Shown here: positions 28,201 to 59,544 of the stretch, in pieces
Position numbering within the stretch: the stretch's first letter is position 1
Layout of the letters: each line of letters starts with the position of its first letter
Source: Chondrosia reniformis
Taxonomy: Eukaryota > Porifera > Demospongiae > Chondrillida > Chondrillidae
NCBI GenBank assembly: GCA_947172415.1
Contig: OX359194.1
Location: 3,162,001 to 3,226,000 of the forward strand
Length of the DNA: 64,000 nt
Direction: 5' to 3'
Program-made: the position numbers and the translations under genes
Notes under the pieces: model-generated
What the model was told of the DNA's origin: nothing
The model's input: only the letters and a program-made list of their open reading frames with translations
Database searches by the model: none

Positions 28201-31200
28201 GTATATGTCATCCATCCAGTCATCTACGTATCTGTTATCCATCCATTCATCTATATATCTGTCATCTATCCATCCATCCATCCATCCATCCATCCATCCA
28301 TCCATCCATCCATCCATCCATCCATCCATCATCCATACATCTATTGATCTATGTTTAGATTCATAGCTATGTTTTGCATACATGGGTATCATGTAATTGT
28401 GTCCAACGCTTTGTGGTTTAGGCTGAGGGCCTGCTATGAAGAGGTTCTGGGTGCAAAGTCCTCCTGGTCAGAGCTGTATCTCCTCTACAGTGGCTACTGT
28501 TCATTGATTGGAAATGGTACATGTCAGAATACTGCAGGATTCCTTGCCACATTGAGGTCAGATAGATATCAAGTGAACATACATACATACGTACCTACAT
28601 ACATATATATGTGCTGTGCATCTGCACCATGTAGTTATGTAAGTACATGAAAAATCTAATACACCATTTTCCTACATGCTGTGCCTATTCTGTAAAAAGC
28701 CTATAGGGAACTAAACCTGGAAAGAGGTTTGGATGAAGATACGGGAGTCTATTCTTTCTTCTTTTCCTCTCTTTCATCTCTTCTCCAGTGGGTCAGACCG
28801 CTGTTTCTGGGAATTCCACCCTTCATCAGTGACCCTGGGAGTCTTTTGTCTTTTTCTTTATCTTGATCTTCTTTGAATCCTTGGTTCTCTATGCTAAATC
28901 TAAGGGGCTTATATACACAATTTACATAAGGTGTTAACTAAACTAAGACACATGATGAAATTAATTTTATGGAAGGAATTAAGTCAAATTGAATTTTATG
29001 AATTAAATTATTTAGTAATCTGGCTTATACAAACAAAACAGACTCAACACAACTATTACAAGTAGGACACATTGCATAAGTCTACCCTTAGGTCTTATAG
29101 TAGTAACATTTCTTTGGAGGTGGGGTAACACAGTATGGATGCACACATTTTAACTCCAAATTAATTGCAAACAAATTCAAGTAAAATAATCTAGAAGCTC
29201 AAATACAGTATTCTTCTAATTTCGAGGTAATTATTTAATCACTATGTGTAGATTGTTTAAAGTGAAAACTAAATGTCATACATGTATACTTATGTACTTG
29301 AATACTTGTTGAGAGTCCAAATGAAGTATCTGTACATACATGTACATATTGTATACAGTCTTGCAACAATGTATAATAATACTTACGTACATACGTACAT
29401 GATTTACATGGGAGGGCTGGTCTCCGGAATCTTAATTTTTGTTATTTATGTACATGGATATGTACGTACATGTGTATGGATGTATACACACTGTATGTAT
29501 GTATTTGTAATGGAAATAAAGCGGACTACTGTATTTCCTCGATTAAACGCTGGGGCATTTTTTCATGCTGCTTCGAGTTGCGGTGCTATTCAGGGGTGGT
29601 GTTTATTAATCTTAGATAATCAATTTCTCAGCAGCAGATGTTGAGTGTGCATCGTGAATGATATGACCGTGGGCACAAGGTCTCGAGGCAGTCTTTGTCC
29701 AACTGTTGTTTGATGGCATAGGGAAAATCTGTGGCGGTCAATTAAAGTGTGGCGTTTATTCAAAGGTAGCATTTATTTTCGTCATTTCTTCCTAGCTGCG
29801 GCGTCTATTTGAGGGCGGTGTTTAATTGAGGAAATATGGTATATAAATATATAACAAATTAATACTGTCATATAGGTACATACATAATATAGGCTAATGT
29901 TTGTCATGGTTTATCTGTAGCTATTTTGTTTGAAAGTGGAAAGTGTGAAAAATATGTGCAATCCCTGTGTATTGTACATACGTATGTACGTATGTACGTA
30001 TAAGGGGCTTGTACGTATATAAGGAAAAATGTGAATTGGTGTCTTTATGTTACTGTTTTACAGGTCTACCTTTCCCAAAGCCAACCTCAAGAAACTGACA
30101 CTTGGAAAAGAATCTGTGTAAGTAAAATAACAATGCATTACTGCTAGTGTACATGTACAAACACGTAGCAATTGGATGTTAACCATTGTATGGCAAATAA
30201 CATGCCTTGACAGTTATCATTTACTGAACGTATGTTCAGTGTACATTGTACCTATTCCCATTTAGTATGTACCGTATGTACGTGCGTATATGATCAGTAG
30301 TACACCTTTTAATTTATCATATGTGTACATACAGTGTGTACATTTTTTATTGTATGCACCTAAGCTGCAGTTTGTGTCTATCCTAGTACTGATATTACCC
30401 TACAACTACCACCCTGCCCCATCCATTGCATTAGCCTCCGCCCACCCACTCATATTGCAGTAGCTCTTTGTAAGTTAAAATTTCTTATGTACAGTACATA
30501 TTCCCTCCTCCACTTGTACGTATGTAGATTAATAGTTGAAGGAATCAAGAAAAGAGATCCAAAGGTGACACCAGTGTTAGTCATCAGTGAAGAGGCTGCC
30601 AAAGTGGCCAAATCACAGCCCAAAGTGGTATCCCAGCCATTAGCTCCTTCTGTGCCTTTTATATTACGCAAGCCGTCACTCAGCAAGGCACAGTTCTCCT
30701 TAACTAGTCCTACTGTTTCCATCACTCAGGTTGCCAAAGCTGATACATCTACTACTTCAGTATCGTCCTCACTCTCTCACAATGGTGCTCCTGTAGCCCC
30801 AGTCAACCATATGAGAGTTCCTCATAGCACCGCATTTTCTACCAGCATAGCTAGTGTATCGTCTACATCTGCAGAAATCCCTTGCGCTGTGACTGTAAAG
30901 CCTAACGTTATCATCACACAGTGCGTGGGCAGCACATCTAAGCCTCTTTCCCCAGCAATAGTGTCTACTGCAAAGGGTAGACCCTCTTCTCCCATAGTTT
31001 ATCTGACTGTCATCTCTTCTTCATCTTCTGTCATTTCTGCGCACACAAATGCCCAATCAACCTTGGTTGCCTCCACAACAGCACCCTCTGTTTCTTCTTC
31101 AACTGTTAGCAATCCTTCCTCAATGCCCAACCACAATGACCAAGAAATGCAGTCTGCCTTAACCAGAGATCCGTTGAACAATAACAATTTTGTACCAACC

Positions 31201-34200
31201 ACAATTAGGTCACAAAATCAGTCTACTTTGAATCCTGGATCTCTGAGAAGGGACGGTATTACAGTAACTCAGGGAGCTACCCAGAGACTGACTGTAGGGA
31301 GAAATACAACATCGTCAGGATTACTCATCAGCGAGTGTTTTACCAAGCCTGCTGTCCCTCCAAGCAGTGACCGCAATTCAGTTAGCATAGATGGAGAGGC
31401 TGCTCTACCTCACTCAGTCAGTCAAGGACCTGAGCTCTTTGGGACTAGCCAAGTGACAGAAATGCAAAGAGAATGTGATTTCAGGAAAAATATTGCTACA
31501 TCACACTTGGAGAAAATAGAAAAAATGGATGACCGAGGTCTGCAGGTTGGAGACTGGGATGCTCCCAAAAAAGAGAGCTCTAAAGCTGACAGTAATAAAA
31601 GTTTGGTTTCACAAACAAATCCTTCAATTGCTCCAGATTTTCACTTGAATGGCAATGCTATGCCAGAGGAAAAGGCCTCCGCCTTAAAACAGAATGGAAC
31701 TAAAATTCTTCTCAACCATGAGAAAAAGTCAAATTTTAATAAATTTGATTTCACTACAGACAATATGACAATGTCTGCTAAGTCACAAGTTCAAAGGCCT
31801 GAAATCAAAAATGATGATGAATCAGAATCTACAGATAATATGGAAGTGGACATAGTAAATGTATCGACACAGCAAGAATCTATGGATATTTCCATGGCAA
31901 CAGCAGAAAATGCTATAACTCCAGAAAATATGAAATCATTTCTAACATCACCTAATGGAAAGGAATGGTTATCCAAGAATCCAAAAAAGAAGGTATTACA
32001 TACGTACATATACACTCTCTCACTATTTTTTCATACCAATGGACAAAAGAGATTTTTAGATGATAGCCTTTTGACAAGGTTCATTTGACTTCATTTGAAC
32101 AGCCAAAGTGTATTTGCAAAGAATTAAAATCAGACTCCACTTATAAACTCTTACGTATGTACAGTAAAGGACTTACATACAGTTTGTTCACACATACATG
32201 TATGCACCACCGATATTTCTGATATGGAGAATGTGTATGTGCTTACGTTTAATATGTACTGTATAGGTTTATATACACACTTGTGTAGGAAATTTGTGTC
32301 CTGTTTGAGTATGTATGTATGTATGTATGCATACTCCTTGCAGCCATTTAAGTGTTAAATTGAGATTCAGGGCAGCTTTCCTGTTAATCATCACCACATC
32401 CCCTGTTTTGTATGTCTGGTAGTCAGTACCCTTAAAATTGTCCAAATAAGGAAGAATTTATATACCCTAATATTTAGTTACAGAAGCCATAGCAGAAACA
32501 AACCAACCTAATAATGTATTCATCCCTAAGTTCCATTCGGATGAAAGTATCAATATTCTTGAAAGTATCAATATTCTTTGCATGCAATGACACATTGCAT
32601 AGAAACTTTTTTGTAGAAATGTGACTGGGCCATCATTATAAAGATGTAACATTATTCTGTTTTGAAAGTATGCAAGTAGTCCAAGTTATGTAGATCATAT
32701 ACTTTAATCAGAATCACCTTAGAGAATGCAGGGACACTATTATAATAATTTGTATATATGTCAAGGTGTGTCGGTGGGAAGGTTGCTACACTGTTCATGA
32801 TGGACTAGCTGATTTGGAGTGTCACTTAAGGAACACACACCTGACAGAAGGAAAAGTAAATGAAAGTCTGTGTAGGTGGGATACCTGTTCCAGTACCCTG
32901 TCCAGAAAGAGATTGTCATTGCTCATACATGTCAAAGTTAGTGGCATAATCTATTCTATTATATGTATAATGTAAATATGGGTATTATCATGTAGTGAAC
33001 CTGCAATAGGGCTGGGTTTAAGTTCAAATTCCTTACTTGGATAAAGTTGTAAAGATTCTTCATTGGCTTAGGTCCGGATAGCCACAAGTTTACTAACATT
33101 ATATTCTCTCCAAATAAATGAATAAGAACTTGACTCTACGTATTTATGTAATATTGTACATAATCTTTGATCTGCACCACTTTAAAATGCCAGCAATGTT
33201 AGTTACTTACGTACGTATCTACATTGTTTAAAGGCACGCAGCAGCTTGCTGCTTTCAATCAGTTCCAAACATATACATATCTACATATTTTTTACATACG
33301 TATGTACACATGCATGTATTGTTAATACTGGAGACTACTGGGACACGTGTCCCCAACTGAAGTAGGGCCCCAACTGGAGTAGTGCCTCAGTTAGGAGTAT
33401 GACCCAGCTGGAGTAGGGCCCAGCTGGAGTAGGGCCCTGGCTGGAGTAGGGCCCCAGCTGGAGTAGGGCCCCAGCTGGAGTAAGGCCCCAGCTGAAGTAG
33501 GGCCCTAGCTAGGTGTAGGTTTAGGAGAGTAGACCACTACATGAGAATAAAATCTCAACTACATTTACCATGCGAGAAAGCAAGAATTTCACTGTAGGTA
33601 GGCATAGTTGCCAAGAAATATGTCTAGCCACAAATGCATAGAGATAGAATACTATCCTGGACATATTTCACAGGGAAGCAGTAGAGCCTGTACATTTATT
33701 AGTTTATGATTCCTGAGTGACCTACGTATCTACGTACTCTATTCTTTTGTTGGAATTTGAGAGAAAACTATTTTGCATTTTTTGGCTAATAGAACTGAAG
33801 CACGTACTTTTTGATAATACTGTAACTTAAATCATCAGTGTTAACCAATTAAGATATTTTAACATCAACATTAAGGTATATTTTTAAGTTAAAATGGAAA
33901 CATTTTTAGTTGTGGCTGATGTGATGAAAAAAGCTTTTTTTTCTTAAGACGGAGACTATGACTGTAGTTTCTAGAAAAAGACTCTACAGTACTATTACTT
34001 AATAATCCTTGTCTTGACCTGCTCAATGTGTATATGGCAGTGTAATTGTTACTTTCCCTGTTCATAAAATGGAATATAGGCCATGTACGTACGTCGCTGC
34101 ACATATTGAAATTAGATTTTATTGAATATGCACTATACAATTTTGAATGACTTTTAATTGCTATTCCTTCTTCAATTAAGTAAGATGAACATTTGTGTAA

Positions 34201-37257: not shown

Positions 37258-37905
37258 AGTTCATCTAGTCCACTAGTGCAGTCTGTTCATCTAGTCCACT
37301 AGTGCAGTCTGTTCATCTAGTCCACTAGTGCAGTCTGTTCATCTAGTCCACTAGTGCAGTCTGTTCATCTAGTCCACTAGTGCAGTCTGTTCATCTAGTC
37401 CACTAGTGCAGTCTGTTCATCTAGTCCACTAGTGCAGTCTGTTCATCTAGTCCACTAGTGCAGTCTGTTCATCTAGTCCACTAGTGCAGTCTGTTCATCT
37501 AGTCCACTAGTGCAGTCTGTTCATCTAGTCCACTAGTGCAGTCTGTTCATCTAGTCCACTAGTGCAGTCTGTTCATCTAGTCCACTAGTGCAGTCTGTTC
37601 ATCTAGTCCACTAGTGCAGTCTGTTCATCTAGTCCACTAGTGCAGTCTGTTCATCTAGTCCACTAGTGCAGTCTGTTCATCTAGTCCACTAGTGCAGTCT
37701 GTTCATCTAGTCCACTAGTGCAGTCTGTTCATCTAGTCCACTAGTGCAGTCTGTTCATCTAGTCCACTAGTGCAGTCTGTTCATCTAGTCGACTAGTGCA
37801 GTCTGTTCATCTAGTCCACTAGTGCAGTCTGTTCATCTAGTCCACTAGTACAGTCTGTTCATCTAGTCCACTAGTGCAGTCTGTTCATCTAGTCGACTAG
37901 TCAAG
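37258..37905. repeat. 26-bp minisatellite, about 25 nearly identical copies
   Basis: The unit gttcatctagtccactag followed by tgcagtct is repeated head to tail with a period of 26 bp. Almost all units are identical. Two units carry ctagtcgactag, which makes the core a perfect palindrome, and one has a G-to-A change. It is not a CRISPR array because there are no spacers. It lies between ARID2 and the TBC gene. Confidence 0.97.
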
Positions 37906-45700: not shown

Positions 45701-48700
45701 ACATATTTGATATAGTGTCCCTAGTATACCTAAAGCATCCAATTCAGTTGACATACGTATGTACAGTTCTTGGATATACATGTGCGTACATAGCTATCAA
45801 TATACATGTGCGTACATGGTAGACCAGAGAATAGCCATTACAAGTAACCTGATTGAGAGTTTTCTAACAGTGTGCCTTAAATTCTAGGGTCTTTTCAGCT
45901 ATAAAAATGATGGCTTAGATGGCTTAGACCCTGTACCTATTCTAATAATTAAGAGCAAAATGGAGCAGGGATGATAGCTAGTGCATACCTAGGAAGGTTG
46001 TTCTGTGTGGCTGTTCCAGCGCATTACTTTAATAATAATGGCCGTATGGTTTATTACAAGCCATTGTCTAATCACACCATTTTGAAAAATTGTGTTTCTG
46101 TAGCTATACAGTAGAATTTACAAAGGTATACCAGACAGCGTTAGAGGTGAAGTGTGGAGACGTTTTCTTCACATTGATGAAATTAAGCAGCCAATGGTTT
46201 ATGACAACATTAAGGCAGTAGCTAGGAGTGGCTCACCGTCTGTGAAGCAGATTGATAAAGATGTTCTTAGAACATTTAGAAATCACATAATGTTCTACGA
46301 CAGATATGGAATAAAGTAAGTAATATGATTGTGAGGTATATCTTAATATAGTATGAACTACAGTCACATGAATATTGCAGAGAAGTTCACCAAAGGTGAG
46401 TTTCTCTGCACCAGAGCTTCCCACAACAGTGTGTCTGACATTATTACTTTCAAGGAAAGTGAATCTAATGTCGTTTCCTATAATAACCGTGATAATCCTG
46501 TAAACATCCGAAAAAGATGGCTGTCTTTACCAACAATGGATGGAATCCTTGTGGCATTCTTCTCGGGTCAAGTGAATCATCATCCATCTCTTCCCTTATG
46601 TCACTCACATGCAGTGCTCTGTAATGTTATGTGTTTTGGATTGATTGCACGCAAGCTGCAGGGGGAGTTTGCAAACAGAGAATTACAATGAATCACGTGT
46701 ATATAGGTTACTTATAGTTTGTGTATACCAAAATGATATTGTAATCATATCATTATAGGCAACAGCAGCTGTTTCATGTGCTTGCAGCTTACTCCGTGTA
46801 CAATCCAGTGAGTTATCTGTGAGCCTACTAAGTTTTGACTGTATGAGGTAGGGCTTAGGGTTGTTGTTCCTTTCTCTTAACTGATCTCTGTTATCATGCT
46901 CTTAATAATGACAGGTTTTAGGTTATTGTCAAGGGATGAGTAGTCTGGTTGCTGTTTTGCTGATGTATCTGAATGAGGAGGATGCCTTCTGGGGCTTGGT
47001 AACCATGACCAGCAACAAGAAATATGCCATGCATGGTGAGAAACCATTCTTCATGCAAGTGGTTGAATGCCCAACACTTTCTGTACTAAAGTGACAGCAA
47101 CAGTTGATTGTTATCACTTAGAGAATTATTTAAATATACAGTAAAGTACAGACACATACATACATGAATGTAGAAATTAGAAGTTAATATCATGTTTTTT
47201 TATTATCGTTTTATCGTAGCGGAGAAGCCCGCGGAAGGAAGGCTTCTATGCTAGTACATACATATACCTGCATACATACCTATGATATGTAACTGTACTG
47301 TGGTATGCATGCAAAGGTAGACTATAGTTGTTTGCTTAGTAAGACGTATACACATGTGTGATGTAATTTCTTCTTCAATGATGCAGGCTTCTTTATACCA
47401 GGATTTCCTAAACTGAAGCTATGGTTTGAACATCATGACAGGATTCTAAAAAAACTCCTTCCCAAGTTGTACAAGCACTTTGAAAAGCGAAACATTGAGC
47501 CCAGCCACTACTGCACTGCATGGTTCTTTAAGCTTTTCATAGACACGGTAAGCTTAGCACCTTCCTGCTGTACCACTATCATGCTACTCTAAATAGCTTT
47601 ACTTGTTACCTTATTAGCATATTCTGAAATATTGTTTTTGGTACATTTGATACTTTTGGTATATTTGGTACGTTGGATTACCTTTAGATCCCATTTCAAG
47701 CTGCTCTGAGAGTATGGGATGGATTTCTGTTGGAAGGTCAAAGTGTCATTGTGGCCACAGCAGCGACCTTGTTAAAAGTTAACAGAAGTTAGTTGTGTTC
47801 CACATGTGAAATACTTCAACACAATAATGCCTAGTTAACCAGAGAACCTGACTTACCTTTTATTTCTGAGTAAGATGGCTGTTTCATAGAGTTCTAACTC
47901 TAGCTTACAGTTGACTCAATTCTCAATGTAATACGTACAGTATGTCTCTCACAATAATGATGTCTTTAGTAACTTTGTGGCCAAAATGATGCATAAGTAA
48001 CCCAGAACACTATTTCCTACATAATAAATCTATTCTATTGTAAAAAGGCCTGTACAGAACTAAACCTAGTGAGAATTTTGTGTGAAGATACAAGAGTCTT
48101 TTATTTCTCTGCTGCACTGGAGGTATACTTAGGTATTATTTATTCCTTTCTTTTATAAATACGTAATTGGTACTTTTGTATTGGAGACTCTTTTCCTTTT
48201 TTATAGAACCTTTGATGAATCTAGATGAAGATGATTGCAGAATTTACATCCAAGAGTTAGGTCAAAGGCATATTGAGGAAGAGAGCTTCATAAAAGAGCT
48301 TCATGATGTAATGCATGACCTTAGTAAAGCTAATCTAGCAATACCTCAATCTGAAACTGTAAGTCATTCAATTATTCTTGTAATTAGGATCCCTTGAGCT
48401 TGTTCATTTTGGAATCTGTAAAACACTATTACAGTGCTTTTTGGGTCACTTATGCAGACCGAACATTGCAATTGGTAACAGTTAGTAACTTGTGACTACA
48501 ATTTGAACAAAGTTTCCTACTAGAATGACGTCACCATGCAACGATAACCTTTTTACCAATTACCGATTGCAACGTCCAGTCTGGACAACCGACCTGAAAA
48601 GTACTGTATAACCTAGAAGGAGGTTTCTGTTTATTGCCTCTTCAATGTGTACAATAATTAGATGTTTCAGTAGAGGTTTCTCTGTTTTATATTTTTAGGA

Positions 48701-48944: not shown

Positions 48945-49672
48945 TACTAGAACTAATTGAAACTATTTTATGTTATATATAACAATGCTATAATGTCATT
49001 ATACGTACAGTAATTGTAAAGATTCTATTTGATCCTGTGATTTGTATCACACATATGACTGCTGCACTCTATGCAATGTTATTTTATTTTGAAATTTACC
49101 ATTTGTATTGAACACTTCATGGTTGTGCATTATTTTGAGAAATTACATATTATTTGAGTCCACTAATGTTAATGAATTCAGCAGAAGCCCAGCATTGGAG
49201 GCACATAAAATGCTAAATTGTATTGCAAAAAGGATATTGAACCCTGAGAGAAGTGATTAACAACTGCATCATTCCAAACTCTTAAATACCTATTGCATGT
49301 GTGTAGATTAACCTTTGTTACTTTGATCATAGGCTGCATTCTCAAAGACCACCACTTTACAGCCTTGCAAATTTGGTGTGTCATAGGTAGTAGTTATACC
49401 AAACTCAAGTGTGATGCACAAGTGATATCCAGGGGAGACTTGAATCAATTGTAAAGGTGATGATAAATAAACATGAGTAGGCCTACTGGTGATAAAACAT
49501 TTATCACTAGTTCAAGTGTGAAATATAAGGTTTGTAACACCCCAGATATCACCCGGTTGCCCTGGTAACGTGATATATATATATAATAGTACAGAGACAT
49601 ATTCATTTCATTACTTTTATATAATGTATAATATTCATGAAAGATTATATATATATACGTATATATGTAATA
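48945..49672. other. intergenic gap between convergent genes
   Basis: The TBC gene ends at 48944 on the plus strand and the CH-SH2-SAM gene ends at 49673 on the minus strand, so this gap of about 730 bp holds both 3' untranslated regions. No repeat family or further gene is seen. atgataaataaacatgag near 49460 is a possible polyadenylation region for the plus-strand gene. Confidence 0.4.
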
Positions 49673-52600
49673 TTATAATTGTTCATTAACGTTGTACATT
49701 TCTTGAAGTCCTCTGATTCTCTTTAGTATTCGCTGTCTATAACCCAAGGGAATAATTCCAAGCTCCTCCTTTAGAGTTGTGTCATCCAGTGACAAAAGAC
49801 ATTCACCATCAATCTCATTCTGGTCAAATGTTCCTTTGAAATTTTCCAAGTTATTTTCCATTAGCCATTGTAGTACATCATCTTTAGACCAACTAGATAT
49901 GTTAGTCGGATTTAGGGTGCCCATTTTTGGGAGGACATTACACATAGCTACATATTTACAAGATGAACAGATAAGTATAATAATTATGCGATTTGCAATG
50001 TCTGTTAATAAAGGCAAACCACACATGTACTAACAGCAGGTTGCATTAATATTGTTACAAGAACTACATTATTAGACATCATATAAATATTATGGTCATA
50101 ATATAGCTGTCATTTTATGGTCATATACTCAACTCATGTCACAATTTTTCTATTTAAATGGCTTGTAATCCCCTCTTCCTCATTATGCTGATGAAAACCT
50201 CCGGATTGAAACATTCAATTTGTTTTTTTTTAAATACAATTGTTGCTGCGTCTCAATAAATTAGGATACTTATTATGAATGCAACAAAAACCCCTTATCA
50301 CTTCATGCATTTACATATATATATATATATCTTACCCAATGGACTGTGAATGATACGCTGATCACCTTCCGTTTGTTTTCCATTTAACGATTCGGGACTG
50401 GTTCTGCTCTCCTTCCTTTCAATTGAAGAGTCATGGTTCACTGGTTGATCAACAGATTTTGACTTTGATGAATGTGAAAGAACAACACTTGGAACAGATA
50501 TGGACTGTGACTGCTGCTGAACCTTGTTACTATTGGATGAACCTTTTTTGTCCTTCTTTACAGTACTATAGAGCTGCATATCATCTCTTAGTTCTTCTTT
50601 TGGTATGTTAATGACTCTCACAAAGCTACCAATTTTTTCTGTAACAAATTCTGCAAAGAGCTGTTGTAGTGAAGCAAATTAAAATTGTAGACATTATATT
50701 AATACTTGTATTGATAATATAAGCTTGGTGATTATATATTTTTAACATGAGCTATGTTTTCCTAATACGATTGTCCACTAACCATAACACACTCTTTCAA
50801 ATTGTTATACAAGTGCGGTCTAGGGGGAACGGTGTACTTCCCATCTTGCCAATGAACCTTCCAGTGAATCACATCTTCTATAATCTTGAAGGTTATAGCA
50901 AAGGTATTTGGTTGACTACCAGTCCTGACTAGAAATGATCCCACCCTACATGTATTAACAGAGAGGGTGTATCATTAACTATCCAAAACATCATACGTAC
51001 ATGGATCAAGGAAGATCAAGGAAAAGACAAAGATTCCCAGGCTAGGGTCACTGATGAAGGGTGGAATTCCCAGAAACAGTTGTCTGATCCAGTGGAGCAG
51101 AAGAAGAAAAAGACACCTATATCCTCATCCCAAGCTACTGTATATCCAGGTTTAGTTCCCTATAGGCATTTTAATTTATAATAAATTTAGTAGGCATAGC
51201 AGGTAGGAAACTGGTGTAATAGATTTGTGGCTATAAAGAAGAGATTAAAAAGCATATTTAAGAGTTTTATATGCAGTTATACATTGGACTGCATTTTACT
51301 TAAAAACAATATAGGGACACCTGTGCCAAAAAATATTCATATGCTAAATAATACAGTAGAATTTCAAAATGCATGTACTGTAATATTGTATAACCAAAAC
51401 TCATATACGTATATACATGCATAACTCCATCGAGCTTCACATAAACGTATATACGTATATATAACTTGAGCTCGTTCCTATTGATATTGAAAAGGAAATA
51501 AAGTTTGTTTGGCAATTATTAACGATTTGTTTGTAGTTTTAAATACAATCGGGTTGATAAATGATCCTAGCTGATTCTGATATTTACAGTGAACAATTAA
51601 TAATAAAATAAGGATTCCTTCTTTAACTAATTCAACCTTATCCTTTGGATGGAACGTCATTCAACTTGTTGAGTGTCTAAAATGTAGTTTTTGGATATCT
51701 TTTGGTTGAATGTTTTGACCCTTAGGGTATTCATCATCGACTGGCAGTTATCTTTTTACAGACATGTCATTTCAATTTTGTGGTCCTTTTTATATAGAAG
51801 CTCAGTAAACTGAAAGATGTTCCATAAGATAAATAAATAATAATTACCAAATCTCAACTACATACAGTGCAATCAGCTTCATCTGCCACAATTGGTTCAG
51901 GCAATTTTATGGCGGATTAATGAGTTGGCCGATTATACAATATGAAGTCCAGTTTATCACATTCGTTTCTTAAGTACAATAAAAATGTAATTTACCATAA
52001 ATAAGACTTTTGTCTTTGAAAATGTGTAAAATGTATATAATACTATATACATGCATAAAAGTGTAGATTTTACTATACATATAACTATGTACAAAAATAG
52101 ATAAATTAGTCCTTGAACATTTTGACCCCATAACGATACGACTGAAGTGTTATGAAAGCAACTGAAGAAGTGTTAAAAGGGCCGATGGCAGATAAAGTGG
52201 TACGTAAACAATATATTATGTGGAATTGATGTCAAAAAACTATGGCGGATGGCGGATTTTACGGGTTATTGGCGGATCTATATAGTTTTGTGAATTCGTG
52301 CAGGAGAAGGTTGGCGGATTGTGCGGTTTGGCGGATAAAGCGATGGTGGATTAGGCAGAGTGCACTGTATATATAACCACATACATTAGTCTTTATAACA
52401 TGATTATGTACTTATATACATGAAATGACTTACTTTCCATATTGTGACATCAGTTTTTCAGCTTCAATTCTGGAAACATTCAGAATCATTGATTCAGTCC
52501 ACAAAAAATATTCTAAGCTCTATAAAGAGTATATACATACCCTCCAATTTAATTGATTTATAAATAAACCTCAATGTAGCAATCAATATGTACATATATA

Positions 52601-55600
52601 AAATGATTTGCTCAAATATTATTGTAGAGGACAACTAAACTAACTTGTCTTCGTAAGCCTTGTTTTGATGTTTTTCTGTATCTGATCTTCTTTCTGTGGA
52701 CAAGATTAATTCCTTCTACTATTTCATTATATGTCAAATCACCTGACTGATTCAATTTCTTTAAATCCTGAACAAAATGAAAATAAAAACTTAAGTGATT
52801 AATTTTCAGTTATAGATTCATCTTGCAGTACTTACTTGCTCTTACAGTATGTACATATACATATATGTATACTATGTATGATTGCACAGTATACATATAT
52901 ATATATATTTACCATGTTAGCCTTCCAGTCTTTCATTGAAAGCTGTGGTACATTAGCTAAATGAACACTGCTAGAAGAGATTGTTTTCAGATGTTCAAGA
53001 AGATGCTATAAACATGCAAGACACAGATTTTTAAGATGTAATGTTATATAATATATGCAATCATTCATGATATAAGCTGTATGTTTATATATACGTACGT
53101 ACCTGAATTAAATGAGTTAGTGCACCAAATGGTGCACTATTCAATCCCAAGCAGTATTTTCCATCGAGTATGTCTACCTTCCAGTTTTTTATTCCCATTT
53201 GATTTCTAGGGAATTCCAGCCATTCATATAAGTATACGTATATATGTACGTATACGAAGTATATAGATCAATTCTGTATGTATACACTTAATTACGTACA
53301 TGCGTACACATAATTATACAATACAGTAGAATCTTCCTTTTTATTTATAGGTGTCTTACTTGCTATATATACATACTTACATAATTATTTAAAATGCACA
53401 AGCAATGTCCATAGATATAGAGCAGACAGCGCTTCAGTATTTACAAATATGTATATAAATCTTTTAAGCCCAAAATCGTGAACCTGTGAAATGTGTTATT
53501 TGCTCCAGAACATTCAGGGGGAAAAGCAACAAAAAAGAGGCATAAATGTTTGGAAGAGACTGAAACCTATATCTGAACAGCATGGTGCAGTTCAATGCCC
53601 TAAATGTGAGAAGTGGTTTAAAAGTAAAGGCGGCAGTATACAGATGTATATAGATCCCATCACGACTCAACAATACATGACTGTGAAACGGCAGTTTCAC
53701 AACAGGACAGGACAGGATATATACATAGGCACATATATGCTTGATGTGCAAGCATATGTACATATATGCACACAAAAATATATGTACATACCTATAAGAA
53801 ATTACTATAAACTGTCCAGCTTTGCTTGCGACTTCTCTTAAAAGGAGTGACCCTGGAACCATTTTCTCCAATATCTGCTGGCAGTCTTCATTAGACAGAC
53901 CTTGATAAACAACCTATGTTCACACAGAAATATAATGGTTATATTGTGTTGTTATTAGAAAAAAGTATACACTGTAATTTTATAATGATTGACTTGGTTG
54001 GCTAACACATTAATTTTTTCGTGCAAACTACTAATTTTGAATTCTTCAACCCAAGTAGCAATTCAATTTCACATAACAGTGCAAATACATTCTGACAGCT
54101 ATACTGCCATGTTATCAGATCTAGAGCTGTCAAAACATGTTGGTATACTTTTGGGATTTTATATATAAAGAATTGAAGAGCTATTTGGGTAGGAGAAATT
54201 GAGAAATTTGCATGCAAGAAACATTTAACATTAGACAAATTGTACACTTACAAATGTGTTTGGGGGCTGTAATCTGTTTTTCTTTATATCCTTCAAGGCA
54301 TGCAAATAGTCTAATGCAAGCTCCTCGTTCTGATGGACATAAGGCAATTCAGCACTAGGATCTCTAAGAGCAGTGAGGAGGGCCTTTTCATCTTCATTAC
54401 TCACTGTCACGTTAATTACAAAGAGTGCACCCTCCTCTACAAATTGTAAAGGGTACAAATGCATACAGCATATTCCATATCTGTAATGAACTATATGTAT
54501 GGACTAAGACTATTAGGAAGTATTTAGATTGCTTGCAATGTATATATTATGTAACTCTCCCTATTAAAAAGTACATAAACGTATATGGCTAACTTCTTGA
54601 TTCCACTGTTTTAACTTCTAGTTGGTATATTTTAGCTGACACACCAGAATATTCACATGGTACAGTGGAAATTGAACCATCCTGAAAAGAAGGCTTTGAG
54701 AGAGAAATATATATATATAAATAACCAAAGTTATGCTAAAATATAATGTCTTCTTATTATTACAAAATTATATATTAAGTAAAAGTTCGGGAAACAAGAA
54801 AAGTGAGAGTAATTTAGACATGGACAATCAATTCCTGCATGCATATAAGTGCATGGTGCCATGGGTAAAACATAACCTGGCAATGACATCGAATATATAC
54901 TACACAATAAAAAGATACCTACAAAGAGCTTACTGAAGATGATTCATATATTCTTTCATAATTAGTATCATTGGTGATGGCTATACAATTTCCCTGTGAT
55001 ATTTCAATTAAGCCAGCATCGACGTATTCAATCTGCAATTATAAACAAGAGTTTTCAGATCTACGTGTATAGCTATACCTCTCTCCTGCCCGCACTCTAA
55101 ACAAGCTAAATACTTATAGCCATATATGGATAAGTAGACTTCTGTTGTGCTCCTTAATTATATTTATTGTTAAAATTAATTCTAATGAATGGAACAGCCA
55201 TATTTCACAGTTTAGTATATAGGGTGCATATACGTAGCTCAACTGTCTGATATGTACCTTGACTATCAGAGAATACGGGAGTACTCTAGGCATGGCCGAA
55301 AAATGGCCGCCCTATCTAATGTATTATCAAGCAACACCTCATAAATCACCAACAAAGCGTTAAAAAGCAGTTAACCAGGAATAGGCCCTATTTCCGAAAT
55401 TCATTTATCTTTTTTCAAATGGACTAGCGCTAATATGCGAACTTATGCGGACACCACAGGATCAAATTACAGGTTTTAGATGGAATGAAACCTATTTGAA
55501 ACTTCTTGAACGGCCAGGTTTCAAAGGGTGGACAAGTATGCACTAGGAGATTAATTTCACAAGTTTCAAGTTTTTCCGAGATCGTTTTCCAAGTTTATCA

Positions 55601-58600
55601 TGCTTTCATGTCTTTTGAAACCTGGCAGTTCCCAAGAGTTTCAAATAGTTTTCATTCCATATGAAACCTGTAATTTGATCCTGTGCACGTAAAAGTTATA
55701 TTTCATCATAAATATTTCTAAACTAGGAAAAAGACAGCTTTAAGTCCGAATGCGCCCTACAAAAAGCATGTTAATTGTGAAAAGCGAAAATTGTAGTCTT
55801 CTTGGTCGCCATTTTTATATCAGAGATCATGGTTTTCGGTACATTTCTCTTGTTTGAGACGTTATTTCGTGATTTTCGCCAAGTAATTTTAACAAGAAAA
55901 TAGGGAATACAAGTATAAAAAACATGATGATAGCAGTAAGAATGGCACCAGTGACTAGTACATCTGCAAAAAGTAACGAAACAAGACAGTGATTATATGA
56001 TAAGACTAATCATATAGAAGTTACATATATACTGAAATTTAAGTAACCTAACCATACACTTCTGTGTTTGAGCGCACCATTCCTACTTCAGCTTGGTGCA
56101 CTCAAATACAAAAGTGTATGGTTAAGTTAATACTTAAATTTCAGTATAATACAACTTCTGTATGATTAGCTATAGCCTTATCATATAATCGCTGTCTTGT
56201 TTTGTTACTTTTTGCAAATGTACTAGTGAACACTGCCATTCCTACTTGTAACATCATTTTGTAAATGTTTTTTATTTACTTATACTTAATGTGCTACATG
56301 TATGCATATGCTTATACCTCCTCTTCAACCAGTTCCTCTAAATATTCAATCATTTGAAATTCAAAAGATTCCTCTATTTCAAATTTCATACTAATCCCTG
56401 TGTATATACATATTGAAAGTTTCTAATTATATATATTGAAAAGTATACACATTTAGTTTTGTACAAGTATAATTACAATCAAGTATTACACAGTGCAAGT
56501 TACAAATTCAAGTGACTCCTAAGATAATCACAATCCAGCCAGTATAATAAATATATATATATACATATCATATAAGGTAGAACACATAGCCTACCAATAG
56601 ATGAAAGTTCCAGTGTGAAAGGGGTCTCAGCTAATAACCACAGTGGATTTGCCTTGAGAGGGAGCTATATAGGAATACCGATGGTCGGTTGCATGCATTC
56701 ACATAAATCAACTGGGTTAGAGATGATTTGGTAACTTGCACAAGAGGAACATCGTATTTATGACATATATAAAGGCCTTGGCCTTTTATATATGTCCTTG
56801 TGTGCAAGTTACCAAATGGCCTCTAACCAAGTTGACTATGTGAATACATGTAACCATCCCGTCGGTATTCCTAGCTCCCTTTCAAGGCCAATCAAATCTG
56901 CTGTGGTGAGATATATATTTTGTGGTGCTGCCACTTTAAAGTGCCTGGCTTGACTGCACAGTTTAATATAGCTGATTGTGGTTATACATGTATATGTGAC
57001 TCACCTGAGCTTAGAAGATCTAGATCTGATTCTGGTATTTCTGGAACAGCTGTAGAAGAGAGCCCTCTCATTTTCAGGAAATAGCTCAATGCTAGAATAC
57101 TAAACACTAGTTGAATTTTGTTGTTGGGATCTTTGGGATGGAATGCCTAATATTAATTGGAAGAGTATAATTCATATAGCATAGAATTATGGAGAAAGTG
57201 AAAAGGAAACAAAGAACATGGAAGGAGAAGTTGGAGAAGATGGAAGATGACAGACTAGTAAAGAAGGTGTACACTGAGGAAATTGTAGGGAAAAGGCCAA
57301 GAGGAAGACCGAGAAAGAAATGGATAGACAATTTCTAGCTATAGTATAAAGTCAATTGTAGTATTAATAATTGTATATATATAGCAGCAACCTCCTGCAT
57401 AGGAGATAAGCTATGGTGCAGATTGATTGATTGATTGATTGCATAGAATTATAATCATTCCATGCACTAGTTGTTACTGGTATCACTATTCAAAAATATG
57501 CAGGCAAAACAAAACAATAAGATTTTTCTGCATAATATCACTCCTAGATTATAATTCTGTGATTATGGAAACATTCAATTGTATGTACATGTCTACAGAT
57601 AACAATGAATAGACAAAATTCTCTCAGTCTATATATATTCTTTTATATATGTAGTCAATGTCAATAGGGTCACACTTGTTTTAACACTTACAGATTATAT
57701 ATATAGACTGAGTATTGTTTAATTTGGTCAGTAAAATGTATACACATAATATTGAAACTTTATATGTAGGTTAACCAAGTTGACTGTAGTTAATGGTAGG
57801 TATTCAGAGTGACATGCATGCTTGGTCAGCTAATGGTAATTACCAATTCGCACAGAAGTACAGAGATTAGAGAACTTAAAGCGGATATCACCTGCATTAG
57901 CGTGTTCTACGACCAAATTTGCACAACAGTACTAGCCTGTCAAGTCTCCTATTTCTATTCTTTTTTTGCTTTGGTATTTCGTTTTTGATTCTTTTTCTTT
58001 TCCTATTAGGTAGGTTCTCCGTCCTCCCTAAGAGGGCGTGAAAGGGCGCATGGGCTGTACCCCCAGATTTAAGCTGAACTCAGGGACATGTTAATGTCTA
58101 AGGATATATATATGCATCCCCAGACAGAAAGTTAATTAGTGGGGCTCGAACCACTGGGAGGTACTCAGCCAACACGTATAACCCTTACATTCCAAGAAGT
58201 TATATAATATGTATGTGTACAGATGTAGTATATACAGTGTGTGTGGGTTATATGTTAAATGCAGATCTAGAATGCCGTATCTATTAAATATAATATACCC
58301 ACCTGTGGTAGTCCAATTTTCCCTAAAAAGGAAATGTAACATATCACATTTTCAGTGTGCCTGTCATCTTTTCCATCTTTCTAACAGGAGTTAAGGAAGA
58401 TTATGCAAATTCAATTAATACGTACATGTAGTATGTGAAGGACTCACAAATATCAAGAAGAAGACAAAAATCCCATAGACATAGAGTAGAATTTAATTGT
58501 AATCACACACTCTCACATTCCTTCCATTGGAGGTGGAATGGTGTCATATTGTATATAACACATTACGTGATTACAGCTCTCTTTACTCAGTAACAAAAAT

Positions 58601-59039
58601 AACTGCATATTATATATATACTAAACTTTTACTTTCAATATATGTAATATGTAAATATGTATACGTATCCTAGATTTGAAATATTTTACATACTTTCATA
58701 TGTACACTTATATTAATGCTACTATACAGGTATAATAATAAAACCATTATCTCATGTATAAAATACCTTGTAGTTAGCTTCATGTCTGTCATAAATATGC
58801 TTCCACTTCGGATATTCTGCCATGTACTTTTCTCCTAATTGGCAGAGGATAACTCCATTTTCCAAATGAGATTCAAAATCAGCCAAAATTGGCATCTCAA
58901 TTCCCAATATGCTTGACACCCATCTATAGTCAAATATGTATGTATATATTTATATATTTTTTATAAATATGATGACTATGTAAAAATCTGTCATTTACAG
59001 CATACGTATATATATGGCAAGCACAGTTTGTACTTATAC

Positions 59040-59072
<33 letters not shown>

Positions 59073-59544
59073 TGTATGTATAAGGCCGAGTGTATTACGT
59101 ACATATAATATTATTATCACATATGTATAATACTCTACATTTGAAAGGAAATTCTTAGCTTTAAAATATATATTACCAATAAAGTTTCCTTTACCAGTTA
59201 TGTATGTATGACATACTGTATACCTATTTATCTAATCTATATATTCGTAAATGCATCAATTAATCATTGGCAAGAGAATATTATATATGGTTCCCATTCA
59301 GTAACCCTGTATATACTGTAGTTGCTCTTCAGTACTGTTACACTAGGTTGTCCCTGTATATATGGACAGTTGCAATTTTATATTTGTATACCAGTATCCA
59401 CAATTTATATTAAAGTAATGAAACCTGTGCTATTTAATATAATAGCTCTTTTCAAGGCTAGTATATAGTGTAGGCTCACCTTCTTGATCTTTCTACTTGT
59501 AAGAAGTACTTTCTAGTGTTTGAACTTATCTGCCAAGCTGACAT
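49673..59544 (-). CDS. CH - IQGAP-like repeat - SH2 - SH2 - SAM multidomain protein
   Basis: Exons in transcript order: 59544-59480, 58923-58767, 58380-58303, (one short exon not located, length 1 modulo 3), 57106-57005, 56397-56318, 55032-54934, 54681-54594, 54436-54252, 53913-53792, 53205-53103, 53005-52913, 52767-52645, 52519-52434, 50945-50783, 50660-50336, 49947-49673. All have GT-AG borders and agreeing phases, about 715 residues plus the gap. The N-terminus is an IQGAP-type CH domain (RSRRWVSSILGIEMP, HLENGVILCQLGE, KHIYDRHEANYK, RHTENVICYISFLGKIGLPQ, VFSILALSYFL). Next comes one IQGAP-like repeat (DEKALLTALRDPSAELPYV). SH2-1 has GLSNEDCQQIL, SLLLRE and NWKVDILDGKYCLGL. SH2-2 has SRIEAEKLM, GSFLVRTG and HWKVHWQDGKY. 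Both keep the phosphate-binding Arg. The end is a SAM domain (WSKDDVLQWLMENN...LGIIPLGYRQRILK). By inference it is an actin- or cortex-linked phosphotyrosine adaptor. An in-frame stop precedes the chosen ATG. Confidence 0.8.
51003..51218 (-). repeat. dispersed SINE-like repeat (family A), near complete
   Basis: It runs from aagacaaagattcccaggct through ggtggaattcccagaaacag, atcctcatcccaagct, ggtttagttccctataggca to taggcatagcaggtaggaaa. It lies in an intron of the CH-SH2-SAM gene. Confidence 0.75.
51863..52369. mobile_element. MITE (about 507 bp) in the CH-SH2-SAM gene
   Basis: The left end tacagtgcaatcagcttcat-ctgccac is mirrored by gtggattaggcagagtgcac-tgta at the right. The interior repeats tggcggat motifs, which is reminiscent of a pogo/Tigger-derived non-autonomous element. 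No transposase frame was seen. Confidence 0.7.
53485..53665 (+). mobile_element. retroelement fragment with a CxxC motif
   Basis: The plus strand encodes GINVWKRLKP, then VQCPKCEKWFKSKGGSIQMY. The C-x2-C-x3-WFKSKGG pattern resembles the zinc-finger part often found in LINE-encoded proteins next to the reverse transcriptase. It lies antisense in an intron of the CH-SH2-SAM gene. It is short and the assignment is tentative. Confidence 0.4.
55262..56285. mobile_element. foldback family F1, large copy with a nested element
   Basis: It opens with gagaatacgggagtactc. The main arms, 55905-56085 and 56092-56285, mirror each other over about 185 bp (gcaaaaagtaacgaaacaag, tatactgaaatttaagta, accatacacttctgtgtttg). 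It lies in an intron of the CH-SH2-SAM gene. The left part contains a second foldback at 55450-55690, described separately. Confidence 0.8.
55450..55690. mobile_element. foldback element nested inside the F1 copy
   Basis: It starts caggatcaaattacaggttt, atggaatgaaacctatttga and ends with the reverse complement (gtttcaaatagttttcattc, catatgaaacctgtaatttg). The arms are about 50 bp, with a second mirrored block (ccaggtttcaaa / tttgaaacctgg) inside. It interrupts the left half of the larger element, so it is probably the younger insertion. Confidence 0.75.
56617..56912. mobile_element. foldback element family F2, copy 2
   Basis: It shares aggggtctcagctaata, ggttgcatgcattcaca, aaggccttggccttttata and tcggtattcctagctccctt with 17706-17993 and forms arms of about 130 bp. 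The outer right end is lost or diverged. It lies in an intron of the CH-SH2-SAM gene. Confidence 0.8.
57191..57440 (+). mobile_element. 5'-truncated LINE insertion with target-site duplication
   Basis: A 250-bp piece encodes the last residues of a LINE ORF2 (KVKRKQRTWKEKLEKME, DDRLVKKVYTEEIVGKRP, RGRPRKKWIDNF, stop). It ends in a (GATT)n tail at 57410-57440. It is flanked by 12-bp direct repeats gcatagaattat at 57179-57190 and 57441-57452, a target-site duplication. The open frame of the remnant suggests a fairly recent event. It lies in an intron of the CH-SH2-SAM gene, near the missing CH exon. Confidence 0.9.
59040..59082. repeat. (GTAT)n microsatellite
   Basis: About ten tandem tatg units. 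Confidence 0.9.

What the first reader, a model, noticed from the sequence alone, without database searches (positions are those of the whole stretch)
49673..59544. A CH - IQGAP repeat - SH2 - SH2 - SAM protein: apparently undescribed domain arrangement
The minus-strand exon chain starts with a clear IQGAP-type calponin-homology domain and an IQGAP-like repeat. Instead of WW, IQ and RasGAP parts it continues into two SH2 domains, both keeping the phosphotyrosine-binding Arg (SLLLRE, GSFLVR), and a C-terminal SAM domain. Intron phases agree across 17 exon borders, including the switch from IQGAP-like to SH2 sequence between 54252 and 53913. To my knowledge, known IQGAPs have no SH2 or SAM. This would be a tyrosine-kinase-responsive cortical scaffold that arose by shuffling near the base of animals.
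Basis: partly seen in the sequence, partly recalled or inferred. Interest (0 to 1): 0.88.

Follow-up and report, generated by a model that had tools for sequence, protein, structure and literature searches.

The report
IQGAP-type CH fused to SH2-SH2-SAM
An animal-like gene appears to join the actin-binding front end of an IQGAP protein to two phosphotyrosine-reading SH2 domains and a SAM domain, a combination not met in the searches made; a transcript is still needed to prove it is one gene.

Summary
On the minus strand 16 exons (ATG 59544 to TAA 49673) with 15 GT-AG introns and consistent phases encode 710 aa. The CH domain is of IQGAP type: IQGAP1 at E 1.4e-19, calponin-2 at 0.052. Exon 8 looks like one IQGAP repeat (17.2 bits; best of 2000 shuffles 8.5; model from recalled human IQGAP1). 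Both SH2 domains pass Pfam's cut-off and keep the phosphate-binding Arg; SAM is strong. No WW, IQ or RasGAP part was found.

The weak point is the exon 8 to 9 join: no homology spans it and there is no RNA. Phases fit, no AATAAA/ATTAAA lies between 54252 and 53346, and exon 9 lacks an upstream in-frame start; three tiny alternative first coding exons in the intron score poorly. I put one gene at 0.8. The likely role, inferred, is an adaptor linking phosphotyrosine sites to cortical actin with SAM-driven clustering. Ten paper searches showed no description, but no eukaryotic proteome could be searched, so conservation and novelty stay open.

The parts
59480..59544 (-). exon 1, start codon and first residues of the CH domain
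   Evidence: ATG with in-frame TAG two codons upstream; joins exon 2 in phase; CH match starts at residue 12
58767..58923 (-). exon 2, CH domain
   Evidence: IQGAP1 CH match, residues 12-155 of the query, E 1.4e-19
58303..58380 (-). exon 3, CH domain
57005..57146 (-). exon 4, end of CH domain
56318..56397 (-). exon 5, linker
   Evidence: splice sites and phase only; its donor is weak, 1.3 bits with itself left out of the matrix
54934..55032 (-). exon 6, linker with tyrosines in NYERIYE context
   Evidence: splice sites and phase only; donor weak, 2.1 bits left out; tyrosines listed
54645..54681 (-). exon 7, short linker exon, uncertain
   Evidence: splice sites and phase; skipping it can also keep the frame
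54252..54436 (-). exon 8, one IQGAP-like repeat (match 54428-54279)
   Evidence: 17.2 bits (exon ORF) against recalled IQGAP1 repeats, best of 2000 shuffles 8.5; no Pfam match above cut-off, no PDB hit
53914..54251 (-). intron 8, the critical join between IQGAP-like and SH2 parts
   Evidence: no AATAAA or ATTAAA; three weak candidate first coding exons of 6, 3 and 2 codons
53792..53913 (-). exon 9, first half of SH2a with the phosphate-binding Arg307
   Evidence: Pfam SH2 25.4 bits with exon 10; Arg placed
53103..53205 (-). exon 10, second half of SH2a
   Evidence: acceptor weak (-0.2 bits)
52913..53005 (-). exon 11, end of SH2a and inter-SH2 region
52645..52767 (-). exon 12, inter-SH2 region
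   Evidence: splice sites and phase only
52434..52519 (-). exon 13, start of SH2b
   Evidence: Pfam SH2 38.6 bits with exon 14
50783..50945 (-). exon 14, core of SH2b with Arg464
50336..50660 (-). exon 15, stretch after SH2b and a Ser/Gln/Lys-rich linker
   Evidence: splice sites and phase; acceptor weak (-0.4 bits)
49673..49947 (-). exon 16, SAM domain (49894-49706) and stop codon
   Evidence: SAM_1 57.2 bits; AATAAA at 49088 is the next poly(A) hexamer after the ATTAAA at 51175 in intron 13

Best explanation
One intact gene encodes a cytoplasmic adaptor of about 710 residues. It keeps the CH domain and one repeat of an IQGAP-type protein and has two SH2 domains and a SAM domain where an IQGAP has WW, IQ and RasGAP parts. 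The likely mechanism: the SH2 pair docks on tyrosine-phosphorylated receptors or adhesion proteins, the CH domain ties them to cortical F-actin, and the SAM domain (and perhaps the repeat) clusters the complexes. Domain content and order are shown; that it is one transcript is well supported but not shown; partners, actin binding and clustering are inferred from what these domain families do elsewhere (recalled knowledge).
For: Open 710-codon frame over 16 exons. IQGAP-type CH, IQGAP-like repeat, two SH2 with the key Arg, SAM. Splicing raises domain scores over raw frames: CH 14.4 to 27.0 bits, SH2b 18.9 to 38.6 (the scanned lengths differ, which shifts bits somewhat). At the join: donor and acceptor are both phase 0; read-through of exon 8 stops after 6 codons; exon 9 is preceded by an in-frame TAG and its first Met lies inside SH2a; no AATAAA/ATTAAA between 54252 and 53346; intron 8 holds only three stop-free, in-phase ATG-to-GT stretches, best donor 3.2 bits against 4.5-10.9 for the 15 used donors in the same matrix.
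Against: No RNA evidence. No homology spans the join. The donor matrix was built from the used donors; with each left out in turn, two used donors (introns 5 and 6) score 1.3 and 2.1, below the 3.2 of the best alternative, so that alternative (a 6-codon exon, 54090-54073) is weak but not excluded. The exon 9 acceptor is moderate (20% of AG sites in the gene score as high); those of exons 10 and 15 are weak (more than half score as high). Phase agreement at one join has a one in three chance. Non-coding first exons of a separate gene cannot be excluded. An AATATA variant occurs in intron 8. SH2a has Asn where SHP2 and SH2b have the His of the phosphate pocket (the role of that His is recalled), so its binding may be weaker.
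Confidence: 0.6

Rival explanations
1. Two neighbouring same-strand genes: a short IQGAP-derived CH protein (exons 1-8) and a separate SH2-SH2-SAM adaptor (exons 9-16) that only look joined.
For: No homology or transcript spans the join; an AATATA variant and eight ATGs lie in intron 8; one six-codon candidate first exon has a donor of 3.2 bits; poly(A) hexamers further on, AATAAA at 53345 in intron 9 and at 53193 inside exon 10, could end the first gene.
Against: No AATAAA/ATTAAA from 54252 to 53346; exon 9 is preceded by an in-frame stop and its first Met lies inside SH2a; the candidate first coding exons are tiny; phases agree.
Confidence: 0.15
2. The SAM exon is a separate small gene, and the main gene is CH-repeat-SH2-SH2.
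For: Exon 16 has an in-frame ATG near its start and the open frame extends upstream to 50029.
Against: Exon 15 has an in-phase donor, and no AATAAA/ATTAAA lies between 51175 and 49088.
Confidence: 0.05
3. The arrangement is real but ordinary: a widespread, unremarked family in sponges or other early animals, perhaps already present in databases as an uncharacterised protein. This does not exclude the best explanation; it concerns novelty.
For: No eukaryotic proteome could be searched here; a survey of SH2 proteins in 21 species (recalled, Liu et al. 2011) is not held.
Against: No listing or passage seen from the ten paper searches describes such a protein.
Confidence: 0.4

Closest known systems
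IQGAP1 and yeast Rng2 (IQGAP family)
   Same: CH domain of the same type (IQGAP1 E 1.4e-19; entry named rng2 3.5e-11) followed by one IQGAP-like repeat
   Different: One repeat found, against six taken from recalled human IQGAP1; no WW, IQ, RasGAP or RasGAP_C found; has SH2, SH2, SAM
SHP2, RASA1 and PLC-gamma (proteins with two SH2 domains)
   Same: Two SH2 domains in one chain; these are among the best but weak PDB matches of the SH2 region
   Different: No catalytic domain found; the 94-residue inter-SH2 stretch matches no Pfam family
SLP-76/BLNK and SHIP2 (SAM plus SH2; recalled)
   Same: SAM and SH2 in one signalling protein
   Different: One SH2 only, no CH; comparison from memory
Vav (CH plus SH2; recalled)
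   Same: A CH and an SH2 domain in one protein that links tyrosine signalling to actin
   Different: Vav has DH, PH, C1 and SH3 domains and no SAM (recalled); the CH here matches IQGAP1; Vav was not compared directly

Membership tests
IQGAP | N-terminal CH domain of IQGAP type | tested here: met
   IQGAP1 E 1.4e-19; best match outside the IQGAP/Rng2 group is calponin-2 at 0.052
IQGAP | several IQGAP repeats | tested here: inconclusive
   one repeat in exon 8; no second among 653 window ORFs of 40 aa or more (next ORF 4.0 bits); model built from recalled sequence
IQGAP | WW domain and IQ motifs | tested here: not met
   none in the spliced protein or the three raw minus frames of the gene; no IQ pattern in the protein. 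Short motifs split by introns could be missed in raw frames
IQGAP | RasGAP and RasGAP_C domains | tested here: not met
   none in the three minus frames of the gene or in six frames of 4.5 kb upstream and 5 kb downstream; the same kind of scan did find the neighbour's TBC domain
SH2 adaptor | SH2 domain with the phosphate-binding Arg | tested here: met
   two SH2 above cut-off, Arg307 and Arg464
SH2 adaptor | binds phosphotyrosine | not testable with these tools
   needs a binding assay
SAM-domain protein | SAM domain | tested here: met
   SAM_1 57.2 bits, cut-off 23; best PDB match liprin-beta-1, E 1.6e-9

The most novel reading that the evidence does not exclude
A conserved early-animal adaptor family arose when the CH and first repeat of an IQGAP were joined by exon shuffling (phase-0 intron next to the SH2 start) to an SH2-SH2-SAM module, giving a one-protein bridge from tyrosine-kinase signalling to cortical actin that most animals later lost.
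Probability: 0.3. Interest if true: 0.68.

Novelty: new variant of a known kind. Interest (0 to 1): 0.5.

Why it matters
If it is one gene, an IQGAP front end has been reused without the RasGAP machinery and placed under tyrosine-phosphorylation control. That would be a concrete, testable example of how early animals wired kinase signalling to the actin cortex by combining existing domains. All parts are known kinds, and choanoflagellate tyrosine kinases are known for domain combinations not seen in multicellular organisms (PMC3082566, start of abstract), so the surprise lies in this particular combination.

Tried and rejected
Own genome: not held. Relatives: none confirmed in viral contigs with SH2b alone (4 stretches matched a pattern, 0 confirmed) or the whole protein (no pattern match), nor in genome contigs with the whole protein (5 matched, 0 confirmed). 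These collections are viral and prokaryote and the patterns find close relatives only, so this is no evidence of absence. Paralogues in the window: of 1545 ORFs of 25 aa or more, the only match at E up to 1 outside the gene's own exons was one at E 0.62. Structure prediction of the SAM exon without an alignment was poor (pLDDT 54.1), so it was not used and no fold search was made. The linker 133-218 shows no similarity to recalled IQGAP1 (1556 of 2000 shuffles score as high), nor do SH2a (499 of 2000) and the inter-SH2 part (923 of 2000), which serve as negative controls; the CH gives 0 of 2000. Per recalled IQGAP1 repeat, shuffles of 1000 reaching the score of exon 8: 1, 3, 1, 448, 0, 0; the fourth does not match. 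Pseudogene: rejected, as no stop or frameshift lies in the 710 codons. Papers: ten searches; 0 papers; 5, 6, 5, 6 and 6 papers. I read only term passages of PMC4265756, PMC8380372, PMC9145010 and PMC8305917; the others I saw as listings with the start of each abstract.

Full report
Observation. I rebuilt the gene from the sequence. On the minus strand 16 exons run from an ATG at 59544 to a TAA at 49673. All 15 introns are GT-AG, phases agree throughout, and the frame gives 710 residues. Exon G+C is 0.371 and intron G+C 0.321.

Front half. Against PDB sequences the first 281 residues match 9 distinct sequences at E up to 1: three IQGAP1 constructs (best 1.4e-19), two entries called Ras GTPase-activating-like protein (1.9e-11, and 3.5e-11 for the one named rng2; that both are fission-yeast Rng2 is recalled), calponin-2 (0.052), and three weaker ones at 0.23-0.55, one of which, Growth arrest-specific protein 2, is also a CH protein (recalled). 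Pfam CH scores 27.0 bits, just over its cut-off of 26. Exon 8 has no Pfam match above cut-off (one at E 0.15 to an unrelated repeat) and no PDB match. I take it as one IQGAP-like repeat, with moderate confidence. The linker between CH and repeat (residues 133-218) shows no similarity.

Back half. SH2a scores 25.4 and SH2b 38.6 bits (cut-off 21). Both keep the Arg of the phosphate pocket, at residues 307 and 464. In an alignment with SHP2 stretches, SH2b keeps the His that SHP2 has in the fourth strand region and SH2a has Asn there (the structural label is recalled). Neither SH2 points to one known family among solved structures: the best matches for the pair region are SHP2 and RASA1 at E 7e-6 to 2e-5 (60 of 149 matches shown) and for SH2a SHP2 at 4e-4 (60 of 78 shown). 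SAM_1 scores 57.2 bits; the best of 57 PDB matches is liprin-beta-1.

One gene or two. Homology supports the splice joins inside CH (exons 1-4), SH2a (9-10) and SH2b (13-14): the CH and SH2b scores rise on splicing, and SH2a was not seen in raw frames at all. No homology spans the 8-9 join. For one gene: donor and acceptor are both phase 0; read-through of exon 8 stops after 6 codons; an in-frame TAG directly precedes exon 9, so SH2a needs upstream coding sequence; intron 8 is 338 bp and has no AATAAA or ATTAAA. It holds three stop-free, in-phase ATG-to-GT stretches, of 6, 3 and 2 codons, whose donors score 3.2, 1.4 and -2.2 against 4.5-10.9 for the 15 used donors in the same matrix. Against: with each used donor left out of its own matrix, the donors of introns 5 and 6 score only 1.3 and 2.1, so 3.2 is not disqualifying; the exon 9 acceptor is moderate, those of exons 10 and 15 weak; an AATATA variant lies in intron 8. 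Poly(A) hexamers in the gene: six in the introns before exon 6 (59438 to 55168), then AATAAA at 53345 (intron 9) and 53193 (inside exon 10), ATTAAA at 52553 (intron 12) and 51175 (intron 13); the first after the stop codon is AATAAA at 49088. I put one gene at about 0.8.

Missing IQGAP parts. No WW, IQ, RasGAP or RasGAP_C was found in the spliced protein, in the three minus frames of the gene, or in six frames on either side; no IQ pattern occurs in the protein. So the protein may work partly like the N-terminus of an IQGAP but lacks the family's RasGAP and IQ features, and I do not file it as an IQGAP. In the passages I read, IQGAP proteins of three unicellular holozoans have WW and IQ domains, and IQGAP analogues occur in all metazoans those authors studied except Drosophila (PMC4265756, passages). 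A canonical IQGAP is therefore expected elsewhere in this genome; that could not be tested.

Mechanism. The best reading is an adaptor that links phosphotyrosine sites to cortical actin and clusters through SAM. The linker tyrosines in the NYERIYE stretch (residues 199 and 203) could be docking sites for SH2 domains, its own or others'; that is speculation from the motif's look. SH2a begins a few residues after the phase-0 intron, as exon shuffling would leave it.

Novelty. All domains are known kinds. No listing or passage seen describes the combination, but the library lacks most subscription journals and no animal proteome could be searched.

Noticed in passing
window 46134-47556, + strand: Exons of a RabGAP-TBC domain gene (74.2 and 33.7 bits in two raw frames), convergent with the gene studied; coordinates span the best stretches only.
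   Followed up: partly
window 53482-53838, + strand: Open frame antisense to intron 9 and the end of exon 9, with a BED-zinc-finger-like stretch below Pfam's cut-off (16.6 against 20.6 bits), possibly a transposon remnant.
   Followed up: partly
window 37259-37901: Nearly perfect minisatellite, 26-bp unit, 24.7 copies, 99% matches.
   Followed up: no
window 30364-32085, + strand: 574-codon Ser/Thr-rich open frame with no Pfam match above cut-off.
   Followed up: no
window 55455-55685 and 56708-56835: Two inverted repeats with 49- and 41-nt arms inside introns 5 and 4, possibly miniature transposons.
   Followed up: no
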